Source of the DNA: Prevotella merdae
Lineage (GTDB): Bacteria; Bacteroidota; Bacteroidia; Bacteroidales; Bacteroidaceae
Reading direction: 5' to 3'
Length of the DNA stretch: 64,000 bases
NCBI RefSeq assembly: GCF_900290275.1
Contig: NZ_LT985326.1
Span: 12,335-76,334 of the forward strand
Under the pieces are notes generated by a model. That model did no database searches. It saw only the letters and a program-made list of their open reading frames with translations, and was not told where the DNA came from. This document shows positions 49,383 to 53,720 of the stretch, piece after piece (the first letter of the stretch is position 1; each line of letters begins with the position of its first letter). Position numbers and translations under genes: made by a program.

Positions 49383-49655
49383 ATGGCAAATAATAAGAAC
49401 GAAGATCTTCAGTCTCGCAGAGATTTCTTCAAGAAAGCAGGAAAGAGCATTCTGCCTGTTTTGGGTATAGTTATGTTGTCAAGCTTTCCAACTATAGTGA
49501 ATGCTGCAGAAAAGACAACAAGCGGTTGTAATGCAAATTGTGAATCCACCTGTGAAACTGGATGTTATACAAGTTGTCATGTCGCTTGCGGAGGTAGCTG
49601 TAAAGGTGGCTGCATTAACTCTTGCTCTGGCAGTTGTAAAGGCTCATCCAAATAA
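49383..49655 (+). CDS. CXXX-repeat precursor peptide 1 with Tat signal
   Basis: A 90-residue precursor. The leader carries the twin-arginine motif SRRDFFKK (R12, R13), a hydrophobic stretch (SILPVLGIVMLSSFPTIV) and a likely cleavage site at VNA-AEK (41/42). The core has ten Cys at 49, 53, 57, 61, 65, 69, 73, 77, 81 and 85, an unbroken period of four. Spacers are Gly/Ser/Asn/Glu/Thr-rich. NCBI has RefSeq families named for CXXX-repeat peptides and their radical SAM maturases; I recall this but could not check it. The gene is first of seven in one direction. The product should be modified by the radical SAM pair and exported by the TatA/TatC encoded downstream. Confidence 0.85.
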   Translation: MANNKNEDLQSRRDFFKKAGKSILPVLGIVMLSSFPTIVNAAEKTTSGCNANCESTCETGCYTSCHVACGGSCKGGCINSCSGSCKGSSK

Positions 49656-49884
49656 CAAGCCTAACCTTTTCATAAGGTTATGATACTATGCAAGACATAC
49701 AGATCTAACCTTTAGTTTTTTTTCAGACTTGTTCATACTTAACTTCAGCAAGTTCAGAGAATACATAAGCCAAGAGATCATCTAACAAGCCCAAAGAACA
49801 TTTGCTTCCTACAGCCGACAGAAGTCACTACTTATGCAATAACTTCTGAACTTGCAAAAGTTCAATAATTAACTTAAGAAAAAT
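49656..49884. other. gap between precursor genes with hairpin
   Basis: TAACCTT (49662-49668) pairs with AAGGTTA (49674-49680) seven bases after the precursor 1 stop; no T-run follows. It could protect the 3' end of a short abundant precursor message or partly terminate it, giving more precursor than enzyme. The rest of the 229 bases shows no gene. Confidence 0.5.
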
Positions 49885-50199
49885 ATGGATAATAAAACAC
49901 TGAAATCAAGAAGGGATTTCTTTAAAAAGGTACTTAATGGAACGTTACCTTTTTTGGGATTTTTTACTTTTCTCAATATTCCCTTAAATTCATTTGCAAA
50001 TAATAACTGGTCGGGAGATTGTTCATGTAAGGGGCATTGTGAGCATTCTTGTACGGCAGATTGTACAAACTCCTGCCGCTCTTGTGAAATATCATGTTCT
50101 AATGATTGCGACAATGGATGCCTTGGAAGTTGTCATGGAGATTGCAAGAGATCATGTCTATATAGTTGTATTGAATCATGTAAAAACTATTTACGCTAA
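49885..50199 (+). CDS. CXXX-repeat precursor peptide 2 with Tat signal
   Basis: A 104-residue precursor with SRRDFFKK (R9, R10), a hydrophobic segment (TLPFLGFFTFLNIPLN) and likely cleavage at SFA-NNN. The core has 15 Cys: C46, then 48, 52, 56, 60, 64, then after a one-residue slip 67, 71, 75, 79, 83, 87, 91, 95 and 99. Thus two period-4 tracts of five and nine Cys are out of register by one residue. Spacers differ from precursor 1 (acidic and His-containing at first, aromatic at the end), so the two share leader type and spacing rather than core sequence. The stop is 3 bases before the radical SAM start. Confidence 0.85.
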   Translation: MDNKTLKSRRDFFKKVLNGTLPFLGFFTFLNIPLNSFANNNWSGDCSCKGHCEHSCTADCTNSCRSCEISCSNDCDNGCLGSCHGDCKRSCLYSCIESCKNYLR

Positions 50200-50202
50200 T
50201 CT

Positions 50203-51411
50203 ATGGAAACAATAAAAGAACGAAATAAAGGTTGGCAAAATGGCACTGCCAAGAACATCACGTTTATTGTAACTAAGGATTGCCAATTGGCCTGTAAATA
50301 TTGCTACCTCGTAGGCAAGAACTCGAAAGAGCGTATGACCTGGGAGGTGGCAAAAGCCGCCATTGACTATATACTCGACCATGAGGATGAGATGAAGGAA
50401 GAGAGTGTAGTATGGGACTTTATTGGTGGCGAACCTTTCTTGGAAATAGAATTGATAGATAAGATTTGTGATTATCTTAAGCTGGAGATGTTTCGCCGTA
50501 ACCACCATTGGTTTAATTCCTACCGCTTCTCTTTCTCCACTAACGGCATCAATTATGATACGGAAAAGGTACAGAACTTCATCAAGAAAAATCGAGAACA
50601 TTTAAGTATTGGTATTACGATTGATGGAACCAAGCGCAAACATGATCTCAACCGCATATGGAAAACAAAGGAGATGGAGCAAGGCATGAAGCTTAAGCCT
50701 GAAGAGGAAAAGGGGTCTTATGAGGATGTTGTAAAAAACATTCCATTATGGTTAAAACAATTCCCTAATGCAGGAACTAAGGTTACGATTAGCAGTGCTG
50801 ATATTCCATATATCAAGGAGAGCGTGCTTCATCTTTACTCGTTAGGCATACATGAGGTGAATATCAATTGTGTGTTTGAGGATGTATGGAAGGATGGTGA
50901 CGATGCTCTTTTCGAAAATCAACTTACAGAACTGGCTGATGCAATAATCGATGGCGACTATTATCATGAATATACCTGTTCTTTCTTCTCCGAGCATATG
51001 GGCAAGCCCCTTGACTGTCAGCTGCAAAACCAAAACTGGTGTGGTGCAGGTATGATGCTGGCTGTGGACGCAGAAGGCAACTTTTATCCATGTACTCGTT
51101 TTGCACAATATTCATTGCGTGACAAGAAGGCTTGGATTATTGGCAATATCCATGAGGGTATTAACCATAATAAGCTTAGACCATTCTTGACCTTGGACAG
51201 ATGTACACAATCTACACAAGAGTGTATTGACTGTGAAGTGGCTGAAGGTTGCGCTTGGTGTCAAGGCGAAAATTATGACGCTGCCGATACTCCTACTGTT
51301 TATCAGCGTTCTACTGCCATATGCAAGATGCACAAGGCAAGGGTTAGAGCGAACAATTATTATTGGAACAAACTATACCGTAAACTCGAAAAGGAAGGAG
51401 GTGAGAAATGA
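50203..51411 (+). CDS. radical SAM/SPASM peptide maturase, CXXX-repeat type
   Basis: This 402-residue enzyme has the [4Fe-4S] cluster motif TKDCQLACKYCYLVG (C27, C31, C34), GGEP-like FIGGEPFLEIELID as the SAM-binding strand and a TIM-barrel core. The C-terminal SPASM-type region has WCGAGMMLAVDAEGNFYPC and CTQSTQECIDC then EGCAWC, which would hold auxiliary clusters. Such enzymes use a 5'-deoxyadenosyl radical to crosslink Cys sulfur to carbon (thioether) in RiPP precursors; that reaction here is inferred from family and substrate. It follows precursor 2 by 3 bases and overlaps the second maturase by 4 bases. Confidence 0.9.
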   Translation: METIKERNKGWQNGTAKNITFIVTKDCQLACKYCYLVGKNSKERMTWEVAKAAIDYILDHEDEMKEESVVWDFIGGEPFLEIELIDKICDYLKLEMFRRNHHWFNSYRFSFSTNGINYDTEKVQNFIKKNREHLSIGITIDGTKRKHDLNRIWKTKEMEQGMKLKPEEEKGSYEDVVKNIPLWLKQFPNAGTKVTISSADIPYIKESVLHLYSLGIHEVNINCVFEDVWKDGDDALFENQLTELADAIIDGDYYHEYTCSFFSEHMGKPLDCQLQNQNWCGAGMMLAVDAEGNFYPCTRFAQYSLRDKKAWIIGNIHEGINHNKLRPFLTLDRCTQSTQECIDCEVAEGCAWCQGENYDAADTPTVYQRSTAICKMHKARVRANNYYWNKLYRKLEKEGGEK

Positions 51412-52373: not shown

Positions 52374-52395
52374 TAATATTAATAACAATAGAATT

Positions 52396-52671
52396 ATGGC
52401 AATAAAAAAAGTTGTAGGTCAGGTTACACCTGAGGAAAAAAATGAAATACAGCAGTTGTTCGAACGTCGCAATGGCTTGAACGAATTGGCTAAGATATTG
52501 ACACCTGAGAATGCCGATTTGTATGAGAAATTGGTGAAAGACTTAGGCGAAACAGCTTTTAAGTTCCAATCGTGGTGGAACAGAATGGCTGATAAATACC
52601 AATGGGAAAGTACAAACAACGGCAACTGGGAAATTAATTTCGATACATGTGAAATATATTTAGTGGCATAA
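52396..52671 (+). CDS. small CXXX-repeat modification system protein
   Basis: A 91-residue soluble protein (MAIKKVVGQVTPEEKNEIQQ) of helical character with a C-terminal strand region (WWNRMADKYQWESTNNGNWE). No Cys cluster, no signal and no membrane segment. Its place between maturases and tat genes fits a precursor-binding or adaptor role, comparable to recognition elements of other RiPP systems but not visibly RRE-like. It matches in size the small accessory proteins that go with CXXX-repeat maturases, as I recall. The function is inferred from context. Confidence 0.65.
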   Translation: MAIKKVVGQVTPEEKNEIQQLFERRNGLNELAKILTPENADLYEKLVKDLGETAFKFQSWWNRMADKYQWESTNNGNWEINFDTCEIYLVA

Positions 52672-52675
52672 GGCT

Positions 52676-52939
52676 ATGAGGATAATGTTGTTAATGATAG
52701 GAACATCCGAGTTGCTGCTTATAGCAGCCTTGGTATTGTTGCTCTTTGGCGGTAAGAAATTGCCAGAGATGATGAAGGGATTGGGACAAGGTGTTCGTAG
52801 TTTTAAAGATGGAATGAAAGACGTTTCGGATGAGAACGTACATGAGCCACAATCTAGCCAACAAATGCAAGCAACGGATGAAGCTTCTGATAAAAATAAG
52901 GAGCAAACAGAATATAAAAAGAAAGAGAATGAAAAATAA
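52676..52939 (+). CDS. tatA: TatA/E-type twin-arginine translocase subunit
   Basis: This 87-residue protein has an N-terminal membrane helix (GTSELLLIAALVLLLFGGKK, about 9-28), then the TatA hinge and amphipathic helix LPEMMKGLGQGVRSFKDGMK. The FGxKKLPE sequence is diagnostic. The tail is polar and Lys/Glu/Gln-rich. TatA oligomers form the translocating channel with TatC. There is no separate TatB, so this subunit may do both jobs as in minimal TatAC systems. It starts 4 bases after the preceding gene and overlaps tatC by 11 bases. Confidence 0.92.
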   Translation: MRIMLLMIGTSELLLIAALVLLLFGGKKLPEMMKGLGQGVRSFKDGMKDVSDENVHEPQSSQQMQATDEASDKNKEQTEYKKKENEK

Positions 52940-53720
52940 TCAGAATGATAATCTGATGACTTTTGGGGAGCATCTTGAGGTATTCCGCAAGATGCTCTTT
53001 CGCATCATTGGCATTACGGTTTGCTTGACAGTATTTATTTTTTGCGCAAAAGAAACCACATTCAATTTGTTGTTAGCCCCATGCGACAATCATTTCATTA
53101 CTTATCGTTTAATAGAGGACTTTTTGGGACAAATGGGTATGGATTTTCATTTCGATCATTACTCAATCCAAATGATAAATACCGAATTGTCAAGCCAGTT
53201 CATAACTCATGTTTCTACATCTGTGTATCTGTCATTGCTATTAGTTTCTCCTTATATCGTAGTAGAGCTATACCACTACATTGCTCCAGCATTATATGAT
53301 AACGAGCGTCGATACTCTGTGTCTGTGGCAACTGCCATATACCTTTTGTTCATCTTAGGAGTGCTGATGAGCTACTTTGTGTTGTTTCCTTTTGCCTTGC
53401 GTTTCTTGGGCACTTATCAGGTAGCGGCAAGTGTGGTGAATCAGATTAATCTGGATTCATACATTTCTACATTTGTAACATTAACACTTATGATGGGATT
53501 GGTTTTCCAACTGCCCATCATGTCATTTTTCTTGGCAAAGATGGGAATATTGCAGGCCACATTTATGAAGAAATATCGTCGGCATGCACTTGTACTAATA
53601 GGCATTGTAGCTGCTGTGATTACACCTCCCGACCTATTCACTTGCTTTATGGTTATGATGCCAATGTATGGATTATACGAACTAAGCATATTGATAGTGG
53701 AACGGATAAAAACTATATAA
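52929..53720 (+). CDS. tatC: TatC twin-arginine translocase receptor
   Basis: A 263-residue protein from ATG 52929. TFGEHLEVFRKMLFRIIGIT is the conserved N-terminal TatC signature with the E-H-L-E-x-x-R pattern that contacts the twin-arginine motif. Six hydrophobic segments follow, with SVYLSLLLVSPYIVVELYHY before the third and FQLPIMSFFLAKMGILQ (conserved FQ.P) later. TatC recognises RR signals at the inner membrane. A longer upstream frame exists inside tatA, but homology begins at MKNNQNDNLMTFGEHLE. A terminator lies 50 bases downstream. Confidence 0.93.
   Translation: MKNNQNDNLMTFGEHLEVFRKMLFRIIGITVCLTVFIFCAKETTFNLLLAPCDNHFITYRLIEDFLGQMGMDFHFDHYSIQMINTELSSQFITHVSTSVYLSLLLVSPYIVVELYHYIAPALYDNERRYSVSVATAIYLLFILGVLMSYFVLFPFALRFLGTYQVAASVVNQINLDSYISTFVTLTLMMGLVFQLPIMSFFLAKMGILQATFMKKYRRHALVLIGIVAAVITPPDLFTCFMVMMPMYGLYELSILIVERIKTI

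What the first reader, a model, noticed from the sequence alone, without database searches (positions are those of the whole stretch)
49383..53720. Self-contained CXXX-repeat peptide system with its own twin-arginine exporter
Seven plus-strand genes read as one operon: two Cys-rich precursors, a radical SAM/SPASM maturase, a second SPASM-like maturase, a 91-residue accessory protein, TatA and TatC. Both precursors carry SRRDFFKK Tat signals, and the Tat genes overlap each other and follow the maturases by a few bases. The simplest reading is that peptides are crosslinked or metallated in the cytoplasm and leave folded through a dedicated Tat pore. RiPPs are usually exported by ABC transporters. 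Radical SAM families for CXXX-repeat peptides are known to me by name, but linkage to a private TatAC is not something I can recall being described.
Basis: partly seen in the sequence, partly recalled or inferred. Interest (0 to 1): 0.93.

Follow-up and report, generated by a model that had tools for sequence, protein, structure and literature searches.

The report
Cysteine-repeat peptides with own Tat exporter
A bacterium related to gut Prevotella carries a tight gene cluster encoding two cysteine-repeat peptides with twin-arginine signals, a radical SAM enzyme and a look-alike partner predicted to modify them, and its own TatA and TatC, which likely carry the finished peptides across the inner membrane in place of the usual ABC transporter.

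Summary
In detail: seven plus-strand genes at 49383-53720 encode two CXXX-repeat precursors with SRRDFFKK signals, TIGR04115, TIGR04119 and TIGR04116 proteins, TatA and TatC. The peptide and maturase families are already named in NCBIfam; the link to Tat is the new part, and it recurs. In a family-wide draw, 33 of 40 genomes with TIGR04116 have TatC in the same cluster; 133 of 140 precursors in related loci carry a twin-arginine motif. Most cluster-linked TatC form one clade apart from housekeeping TatC. Genomes with only cluster-linked TatC mostly lack recognisable ordinary Tat substrates (present in 2 of 12, against 33 of 38). In the same order, one relative without the arginine signal has an ABC transporter and a subtilase instead of TatAC. 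Two refinements: the 'second maturase' has a radical SAM fold without the SAM-cluster motif, and up to a third of relatives' precursors look like lipoproteins, so the destination may be the cell surface. The private TatAC is common, not obligatory; export and modification are untested.

The parts
49383..49655 (+). Precursor P1, 90 aa; 10 Cys all spaced by 4
   Evidence: ORF; TIGR04117 52.1 bits over cut-off 50; Cys spacing
49413..49436 (+). SRRDFFKK twin-arginine motif of P1 (residues 11-18)
   Evidence: sequence; by eye a VNA|A signal peptidase I-like site follows at residues 39-42 (not run through a predictor)
49527..49652 (+). CXXX core of P1 (residues 49-90)
49885..50199 (+). Precursor P2, 104 aa; 15 Cys, 12 of 14 spacings are 4
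   Evidence: ORF; TIGR04117 32.3 bits, below cut-off
49906..49929 (+). SRRDFFKK twin-arginine motif of P2 (residues 8-15)
   Evidence: sequence
50020..50196 (+). CXXX core of P2 (residues 46-104)
50203..51411 (+). Radical SAM/SPASM maturase (TIGR04115) with CX3CX2C at residue 27
   Evidence: 640.6 bits; motif
51408..52373 (+). TIGR04119 protein: pseudo-radical-SAM partner, complete 7-Cys SPASM, no CX3CX2C
52396..52671 (+). TIGR04116 accessory protein, 91 aa, predicted helical hairpin plus small sheet
   Evidence: 101.6 bits; AF2 pLDDT 93.7; no significant fold match
52676..52939 (+). TatA
   Evidence: TIGR01411 60.8 bits; PF02416
52929..53720 (+). TatC, 263 aa, in the clade of CXXX-linked TatC
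   Evidence: TIGR00945 152.5 bits; tree; clade markers
53770..53795 (.). Terminator-like hairpin (10 pairs) between tatC and the convergent neighbour
   Evidence: consensus match only, scored with a T run on the minus strand

Best explanation
This is a CXXX-repeat peptide (RiPP-type) cluster in which the precursors carry twin-arginine signals in place of an ordinary leader, and the peptides are likely modified in the cytoplasm by the radical SAM enzyme and then exported through the cluster's own TatAC. Proposed steps: (1) P1 and P2 are encoded with an SRRDFFKK Tat signal followed by a Cys-every-fourth-residue core (shown by sequence). (2) The TIGR04115 radical SAM/SPASM enzyme, in complex with the TIGR04119 pseudo-radical-SAM protein and the TIGR04116 protein, installs cross-links, most likely Cys thioethers, on the core (inferred from kinship to PapB and CteB and from gene fusions). 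(3) The finished peptide engages TatC by its RR signal and crosses the inner membrane through TatA (inferred from signal, linkage, a distinct TatC clade and the ABC-transporter swap). (4) Signal peptidase I, or signal peptidase II in lipoprotein-type relatives, removes the signal, so no cluster protease is needed (inferred). The mature peptide is then periplasmic, or in lipoprotein-type relatives anchored and possibly surface exposed (inferred).
For: Gene content and order. Conserved order precursor-rSAM-TIGR04119-TIGR04116-TatA-TatC in 54 of 80 related loci; of the other 26, 9 end at a contig edge, 3 have TatA only, 14 have neither with room to see it. Family draw of 399 genomes: TIGR04116 over cut-off in 40; TatC in the same cluster in 33, TatA only in 2, contig edge in 1, neither in 4 (and, for the 16 genomes already seen, 18, 21, 25). 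RR motif in 133 of 140 precursors, and in the precursors of the 28 of 30 further fetched pieces in which one was detected. TatC tree of 97 rows: one clade of 54 holds 50 adjacent TatC, window included, and 4 others, 3 of which sit beside another CXXX cluster. TatC was found in all 83 CXXX-carrying genomes looked at. Ordinary Tat substrates (TIGR01409 over cut-off in a frame of 200 aa or more) in 2 of 12 genomes with only cluster-linked TatC against 33 of 38 with an unlinked TatC, Fisher p 1.5e-5. Export-module swap: L136 has a fused rSAM-TIGR04119 protein, a Cys-repeat precursor without RR, an ABC transporter and a subtilase between them, and no TatAC in 14 kb; the Anaerococcus prevotii plasmid NC_013164.1 likewise has a fused protein, a Cys peptide without RR and an ABC transporter, though a LanKC gene also lies there. 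In the 80 loci, relatives of those ABC transporters occur within -4 to +7 kb of the rSAM in 2 only, both on the opposite strand. Fusions rSAM-TIGR04119 and TIGR04119-TIGR04116 suggest one complex. Tat was used in the laboratory to display nisin (passage of PMC11048544).
Against: No experiment. 14 loci with room, and 4 of 40 in the family draw, have no tat genes although precursors there keep RR, so the private pair is not essential. 25 of 50 genomes have a second TatC that could do the job. 2 of 12 genomes with only cluster-linked TatC do have ordinary Tat substrates, and 5 of 38 with an unlinked one show none. Four adjacent TatC (L067, L045, L047, L075) fall outside the main clade, whose support is 90/98, short of the tool's mark. 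Seven of 140 precursor ORFs show no RR (L002 and L025 start at a contig edge; L012, L017, L022, L027, L076 are unexplained). TIGR01409 does not detect the CXXX precursors themselves (0 matches in G017, which has one), so it undercounts. Most genomes are MAGs of unknown completeness. The ABC case rests on one clear locus; in Anaerococcus the transporter could serve the neighbouring lanthipeptide genes. The window's own genome is not held, so whether it has another Tat is unknown.
Confidence: 0.75

Rival explanations
1. The TatAC pair is simply the cell's general Tat translocase that happens to sit beside the CXXX genes; the precursors are ordinary Tat substrates and nothing is dedicated.
For: 11 of 50 related genomes have no other TatC than the adjacent one; G025 and G045 of these also have ordinary Tat substrates. 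L121 (G009) has a private-clade TatC beside an ordinary substrate.
Against: 25 of 50 genomes have an adjacent TatC and another one elsewhere (corrected); the linked TatC are mostly a separate clade with own marker residues; 10 of 12 genomes with only linked TatC lack recognisable ordinary substrates, among them Leyella stercorea DSM 18206 (G017) and Xylanibacter caecicola PCHR (G014, three cluster-linked TatC), whose records are named strains.
Confidence: 0.12
2. The products are Cys-rich metal- or cluster-binding proteins: the SPASM proteins load or build a metal site rather than cross-link, and Tat exports the folded metalloprotein, as it does classical cofactor proteins.
For: Regular Cys spacing and Tat's known preference for folded cofactor proteins (general knowledge); nothing here shows thioether formation.
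Against: TIGR04115 keeps CX3CX2C and its next-best families by score are thioether-forming or Cys-rich-peptide maturases, PapB first; the partner's best fold match is CteB, a thioether-forming maturase.
Confidence: 0.2
3. The peptides are surface lipoproteins: Tat plus signal peptidase II plus the Bacteroidota lipoprotein export route puts a cross-linked Cys core on the outer face; the two window precursors are an unlipidated offshoot. (This can be true together with the best explanation.)
For: 44 of 133 RR precursors have a lipobox-like Cys after the signal, 32 of these with two or more Asp/Glu in the next six residues (for example CSKDDDDDDDYD in L. stercorea), resembling the LES of PMC5080379 (passages); distant relatives L134, L201, L202 look the same.
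Against: The window's P1 and P2 have no such Cys; 84 of the 89 remaining precursors have an AxA-like site. The lipobox call is a loose pattern of mine, not a predictor; in several (L026, L040, L062, L064) the Cys lies inside the hydrophobic stretch and in L016 and L076 it may be the first core Cys.
Confidence: 0.3

Closest known systems
CXXX-repeat peptide system of NCBIfam (TIGR04115, TIGR04119, TIGR04116, TIGR04117, TIGR04114, TIGR04118)
   Same: All three modification proteins and P1 score over the curated cut-offs; so this is a member by sequence.
   Different: The family names say nothing of Tat; the link to RR precursors and TatAC, the pseudo-radical-SAM nature of TIGR04119 and the ABC-versus-Tat swap were not found in the papers searched. 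I could not read the family comment pages.
PapB ranthipeptide maturase and PapA (CX3D/E thioether peptides)
   Same: Second-best NCBIfam family of the rSAM (192.7 bits) and a Cys motif with three residues between partners.
   Different: Below its cut-off of 340; here the residue at Cys+4 is mostly the next Cys, not Asp/Glu; no Tat in the passages read.
CteB (SCIFF/thermocellin maturase, PDB 5wgg, 5why; protein name recalled, entry title)
   Different: TIGR04119 lacks the SAM-cluster motif, so it cannot be the same kind of active enzyme.
Minimal TatAC translocases (B. subtilis type, recalled)
   Same: TatA plus TatC without TatB; the B. subtilis pairs are also paired with particular substrates (recalled, from no call).
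   Different: Here the pair is inside a peptide-maturation cluster and its TatC falls in a clade of its own in the loci compared.

Membership tests
CXXX-repeat peptide system (NCBIfam) | TIGR04115 radical SAM maturase over cut-off | tested here: met
   640.6 vs 350 bits
CXXX-repeat peptide system (NCBIfam) | TIGR04119 and TIGR04116 partners over cut-off | tested here: met
   232.3 vs 150 and 101.6 vs 50 bits
CXXX-repeat peptide system (NCBIfam) | precursor TIGR04117 over cut-off | tested here: inconclusive
   P1 52.1 (met), P2 32.3 (not met) against 50
CXXX-repeat peptide system (NCBIfam) | core actually modified by the maturase | not testable with these tools
   needs mass spectrometry
TatAC translocase | TatA and TatC over family cut-offs | tested here: met
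   TIGR01411 60.8 vs 53.9; TIGR00945 152.5 vs 132.7
TatAC translocase | conserved Glu of the RR-binding loop in TatC (Glu103 in E. coli; role and number recalled) | tested here: met
   Glu126 aligned with LYKHERR of a solved TatC; present in 53 of 53 linked and 34 of 37 housekeeping TatC compared
Tat substrate | twin-arginine motif at the N-terminus followed by a hydrophobic stretch | tested here: met
   SRRDFFKK in P1 and P2
Tat substrate | export depends on Tat | not testable with these tools
   experiment
PapB-type ranthipeptide | maturase over NF047865 cut-off | tested here: not met
   192.7 vs 340
PapB-type ranthipeptide | CX3D/E motifs in the core | tested here: not met
   Cys spacing is 4 throughout P1 and 12 of 14 in P2, so Cys+4 is mostly Cys
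Active radical SAM enzyme (for TIGR04119) | CX3CX2C cluster motif | tested here: not met
   absent in the window protein and in the first 80 aa of all 54 aligned
RRE (leader-binding winged helix) for TIGR04116 | winged-helix fold | tested here: inconclusive
   model shows a long helical hairpin plus small sheet; no significant match

The most novel reading that the evidence does not exclude
A whole RiPP branch in Bacteroidales has given up the leader-plus-ABC-exporter design: the precursor's leader is a twin-arginine signal, a private TatAC exports peptides already cross-linked by a radical SAM / pseudo-radical-SAM pair, and a good share of the products are displayed as surface lipoproteins. 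The maturase family swaps export modules (RR signal with TatAC, or non-RR leader with ABC transporter and protease).
Probability: 0.5. Interest if true: 0.86.

Novelty: new variant of a known kind. Interest (0 to 1): 0.72.

Why it matters
Natural RiPP export is, to general knowledge, mostly by ABC transporters. A natural Tat-exported, heavily cross-linked peptide family would suggest why Tat is kept in some gut Bacteroidales with few other recognisable substrates, offer a dedicated Tat translocase with a very small substrate (a clean model for Tat specificity), and point to a large unexplored set of Cys-core surface or periplasmic peptides: about one in ten genomes of the family draw carries the system (40 of 399).

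Tried and rejected
Mobile-element cargo: a tyrosine recombinase (46736-48952) lies just upstream and conjugation genes farther left, but no relative of it (E 1e-10) is in any of the 80 related loci, so I take it as an incidental neighbour.

Enrichment of TatC presence in CXXX genomes: 83 of 83 against 248 of 295 looks strong, but the groups overlap by 8 genomes and the 83 are not an even draw; in the even draw alone it is 8 of 8 against 240 of 287, so I do not lean on it. Excess of TatC copies (two or more in 4 of 8 against 12 of 287) is firmer but small.

ABC transporters near the clusters: my first scan used two motifs and was too blunt, since it missed the known transporter of L081; I repeated it with two ABC transporters as queries: hits in 4 of 80 loci, 2 of them within -4 to +7 kb of the rSAM (L054, L058), both on the opposite strand. 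The subtilase of L136 has no relative in the 80 loci.

Tat-substrate test: hits in frames under 200 aa were dropped before counting (for example G021 82 aa, G033 30 aa, G038 24 aa, G019 89 aa); sub-cut-off hits were not counted.

TatC tree: L035's TatC, cut by a contig end, was dropped for length, so 53 of the 54 loci with TatC plus the window are the 54 adjacent rows. G611's linked TatC is split over two frames and was counted as present.

Loss of the E. coli Glu15 equivalent in the private TatC (role recalled): Val in 49 of 53 linked, but 11 of 37 housekeeping TatC also have Val, so it is not a clean marker; Gly-Gly in place of Trp-Asp/Glu a few residues before it is cleaner.

Fused globular domain in long precursors: L005 shows only a sub-cut-off Fib_succ_major match, L006, L021, L030 no match, L017 a sub-cut-off Lcl_C match; not claimed.

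Literature: 10 searches, none listing a paper on a CXXX or ranthipeptide system with Tat (searches gave 5 papers in all, judged by title and start of abstract, one of them also by passage; two searches were for background). Subscription papers are mostly absent from that library. Papers: passages only of PMC11048544, PMC9413430, PMC8326336, PMC5080379; the rest seen as search listings.

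
Full report
Observation. Seven plus-strand ORFs fill 49383-53720 as described. Gaps are 229 (P1-P2), 3, -4, 22, 4 and -11 bases, so P2 to tatC reads as one operon and P1 may be separate. A terminator-like hairpin follows tatC at 53770-53795 (consensus only). NCBIfam identifies the rSAM (TIGR04115), 'CXXX repeat peptide maturase' (TIGR04119), 'CXXX repeat peptide modification system protein' (TIGR04116), TatA and TatC over their cut-offs, and P1 over, P2 under, the TIGR04117 cut-off. 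The families are therefore known by name; the Tat side is not part of those names.

Is the link general? A scan of one genome per species found 341 relatives of the rSAM; the best 80 became loci. 76 of the 80 titles name Bacteroidales-type bacteria; L004, L036 and L064 are titled Clostridium, Clostridia and Ruminococcus, and L079 'uncultured bacterium'; I take the three as mislabelled MAGs (inference). In 54 of 80, TatA and TatC follow TIGR04116 on the same strand; 9 more end at a contig edge, 3 have TatA but no TatC (L005, L006, L037), and 14 have neither although there is room. Because these 80 were picked by likeness to the window, I drew evenly as well. Order draw: TIGR04115 over cut-off in 8 of 295 genomes, 6 of the 8 with TatC in the cluster (G017). 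Family draw: TIGR04116 over cut-off in 40 of 399; TatC in the same cluster in 33, TatA only in 2 (G527, G672), edge in 1 (G620), neither in 4 (G029, G353, G549, G584) (with 18, 21 and 25 for the 16 genomes already seen). Phylum draw: 3 of 395, one being G017 itself; the two new ones (G762, G980) fuse TIGR04119 to TIGR04116 and have RR precursors but no linked TatAC (the fusion of G762 by profile).

Precursors. I collected 140 ORFs with five or more Cys-x3-Cys steps near the rSAM in 79 of the 80 loci; 133 carry a xRRx[FLIVM][FILMVW] motif, chiefly SRREFF and SRRDFF. Of the seven without, L002 and L025 begin at a contig edge; L012, L017, L022, L027 and L076 are unexplained. The strict motif [STND]RRxFF[KR] is in 121 precursors and in 0 of 1088 control ORFs of the same loci. 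In 2256 core units, X2 is Gly in 36% and X3 is Ser, Gly or Thr in about 72%: small residues precede each Cys. 44 of 133 have a lipobox-like Cys after the hydrophobic stretch by a loose pattern, and 32 of the 44 have two or more Asp/Glu in the next six residues, like the Bacteroidota lipoprotein export signal (passages of PMC5080379); a few of the 44 are doubtful on inspection (L016, L026, L040, L062, L064, L076). The two window precursors lack it.

TatC. PF00902 was found in 50 of 50 genomes of related loci (50 of the 80 loci were given). After correcting one typed orientation, 25 have an adjacent TatC and another elsewhere, 11 only the adjacent one, 14 none beside the locus that drew them. 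Of those 14, G012 and G037 have TatC beside another CXXX cluster, and G046 probably across a contig break. A maximum-likelihood tree of 97 TatC puts 50 of 54 adjacent ones, the window's included, in one clade of 54 (support 90/98, just short of the tool's star); the four others in it are L122, L123 and L129, beside further CXXX clusters, and L121, unlinked. Four adjacent ones lie elsewhere, so capture may have happened more than once. Linked and housekeeping TatC differ at several positions, for example FGGHLEVLR against FWDHLDELR at the N-terminus, while the Glu of the signal-binding loop is kept in both.

Dedicated or general? The Tat-signal family TIGR01409 finds proteins in frames of 300-500 aa in most genomes with an unlinked TatC, often a few kb from that TatC. 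Counting frames of 200 aa or more over the cut-off, 33 of 38 genomes with an unlinked TatC have one, against 2 of 12 genomes whose every TatC is CXXX-linked (Fisher p 1.5e-5). L. stercorea and X. caecicola are in the latter group with none. The model misses the CXXX precursors themselves, so it measures ordinary substrates only, and MAG gaps may add to the effect.

Export swap. G083 of the order draw (L136) has the rSAM and TIGR04119 fused in one 721-aa protein, a Cys-repeat precursor of the TIGR04118 kind (33.0 bits, just under the cut-off of 35) with no RR, and between them a 593-aa ABC transporter and a 235-aa subtilase; no TatAC in the 14-kb locus, although the genome has one TatC on another contig. 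The Anaerococcus prevotii plasmid has the same fused protein, a non-RR Cys peptide and an ABC transporter next door, but also a class III lanthionine synthetase, so that transporter may have another client. In the 80 loci, relatives of these transporters lie within -4 to +7 kb of the rSAM in 2 only, both on the opposite strand. In these cases the maturase family goes with one or the other export module.

Mechanism. Shown: signals, families, linkage, clade, swap, missing motif. Inferred: cross-linking (thioether likeliest, from PapB and CteB kinship; passages of PMC9413430), export of the modified form, signal peptidase processing, final location. A natural reason for Tat is that a cross-linked core could hardly be threaded through Sec (inference); that Tat can carry a lanthipeptide was exploited for nisin display (passage of PMC11048544).

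Novelty. Eight searches of 5.39 million open papers gave no account of this linkage; subscription papers and NCBIfam comments were not seen. I file it as a new variant of a known kind: a named RiPP family with an export route I did not find in print.

Noticed in passing
window 46736-48952 (-): A 738-aa tyrosine recombinase with four Arm-DNA-bind_5 stretches next to the cluster; recombinases at 37174-38499 and 28572-29840, a relaxase at 35133-36200, TraG- and coupling-protein-like ORFs at 17878-20436 and 6236-8419: conjugative or mobilizable element(s) in the left of the window.
   Followed up: partly
window 41449-42898 (-): AbiEii toxin-like ORF beside a sub-cut-off AbiEi-like ORF: a type IV toxin-antitoxin-like pair among the mobile genes.
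   Followed up: no
window 61573-62679 (+): HipA-like protein.
   Followed up: no
A private TatA working with a housekeeping TatC?
   Followed up: partly
L177 (G414): TIGR04116, TatA and TatC together with no maturase in the fetched 8.5 kb.
   Followed up: no
L121 (G009): TatC of the private clade, without CXXX genes within 5 kb, about 2 kb from an ordinary Tat-signal protein; sister to the same genome's linked TatC: possible replacement of the housekeeping TatC.
   Followed up: partly
L005 4369-5652, L006 454-1818: Very long precursors (over 400 aa) with two Cys-repeat stretches around a non-repetitive middle; only a sub-cut-off Fib_succ_major match in L005.
   Followed up: partly
L136 176-2352 (G083): Two further radical SAM ORFs (738-1661, 1576-2352) upstream of the ABC-type CXXX cluster, and a TonB-dependent receptor plus DUF4249 downstream.
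   Followed up: no
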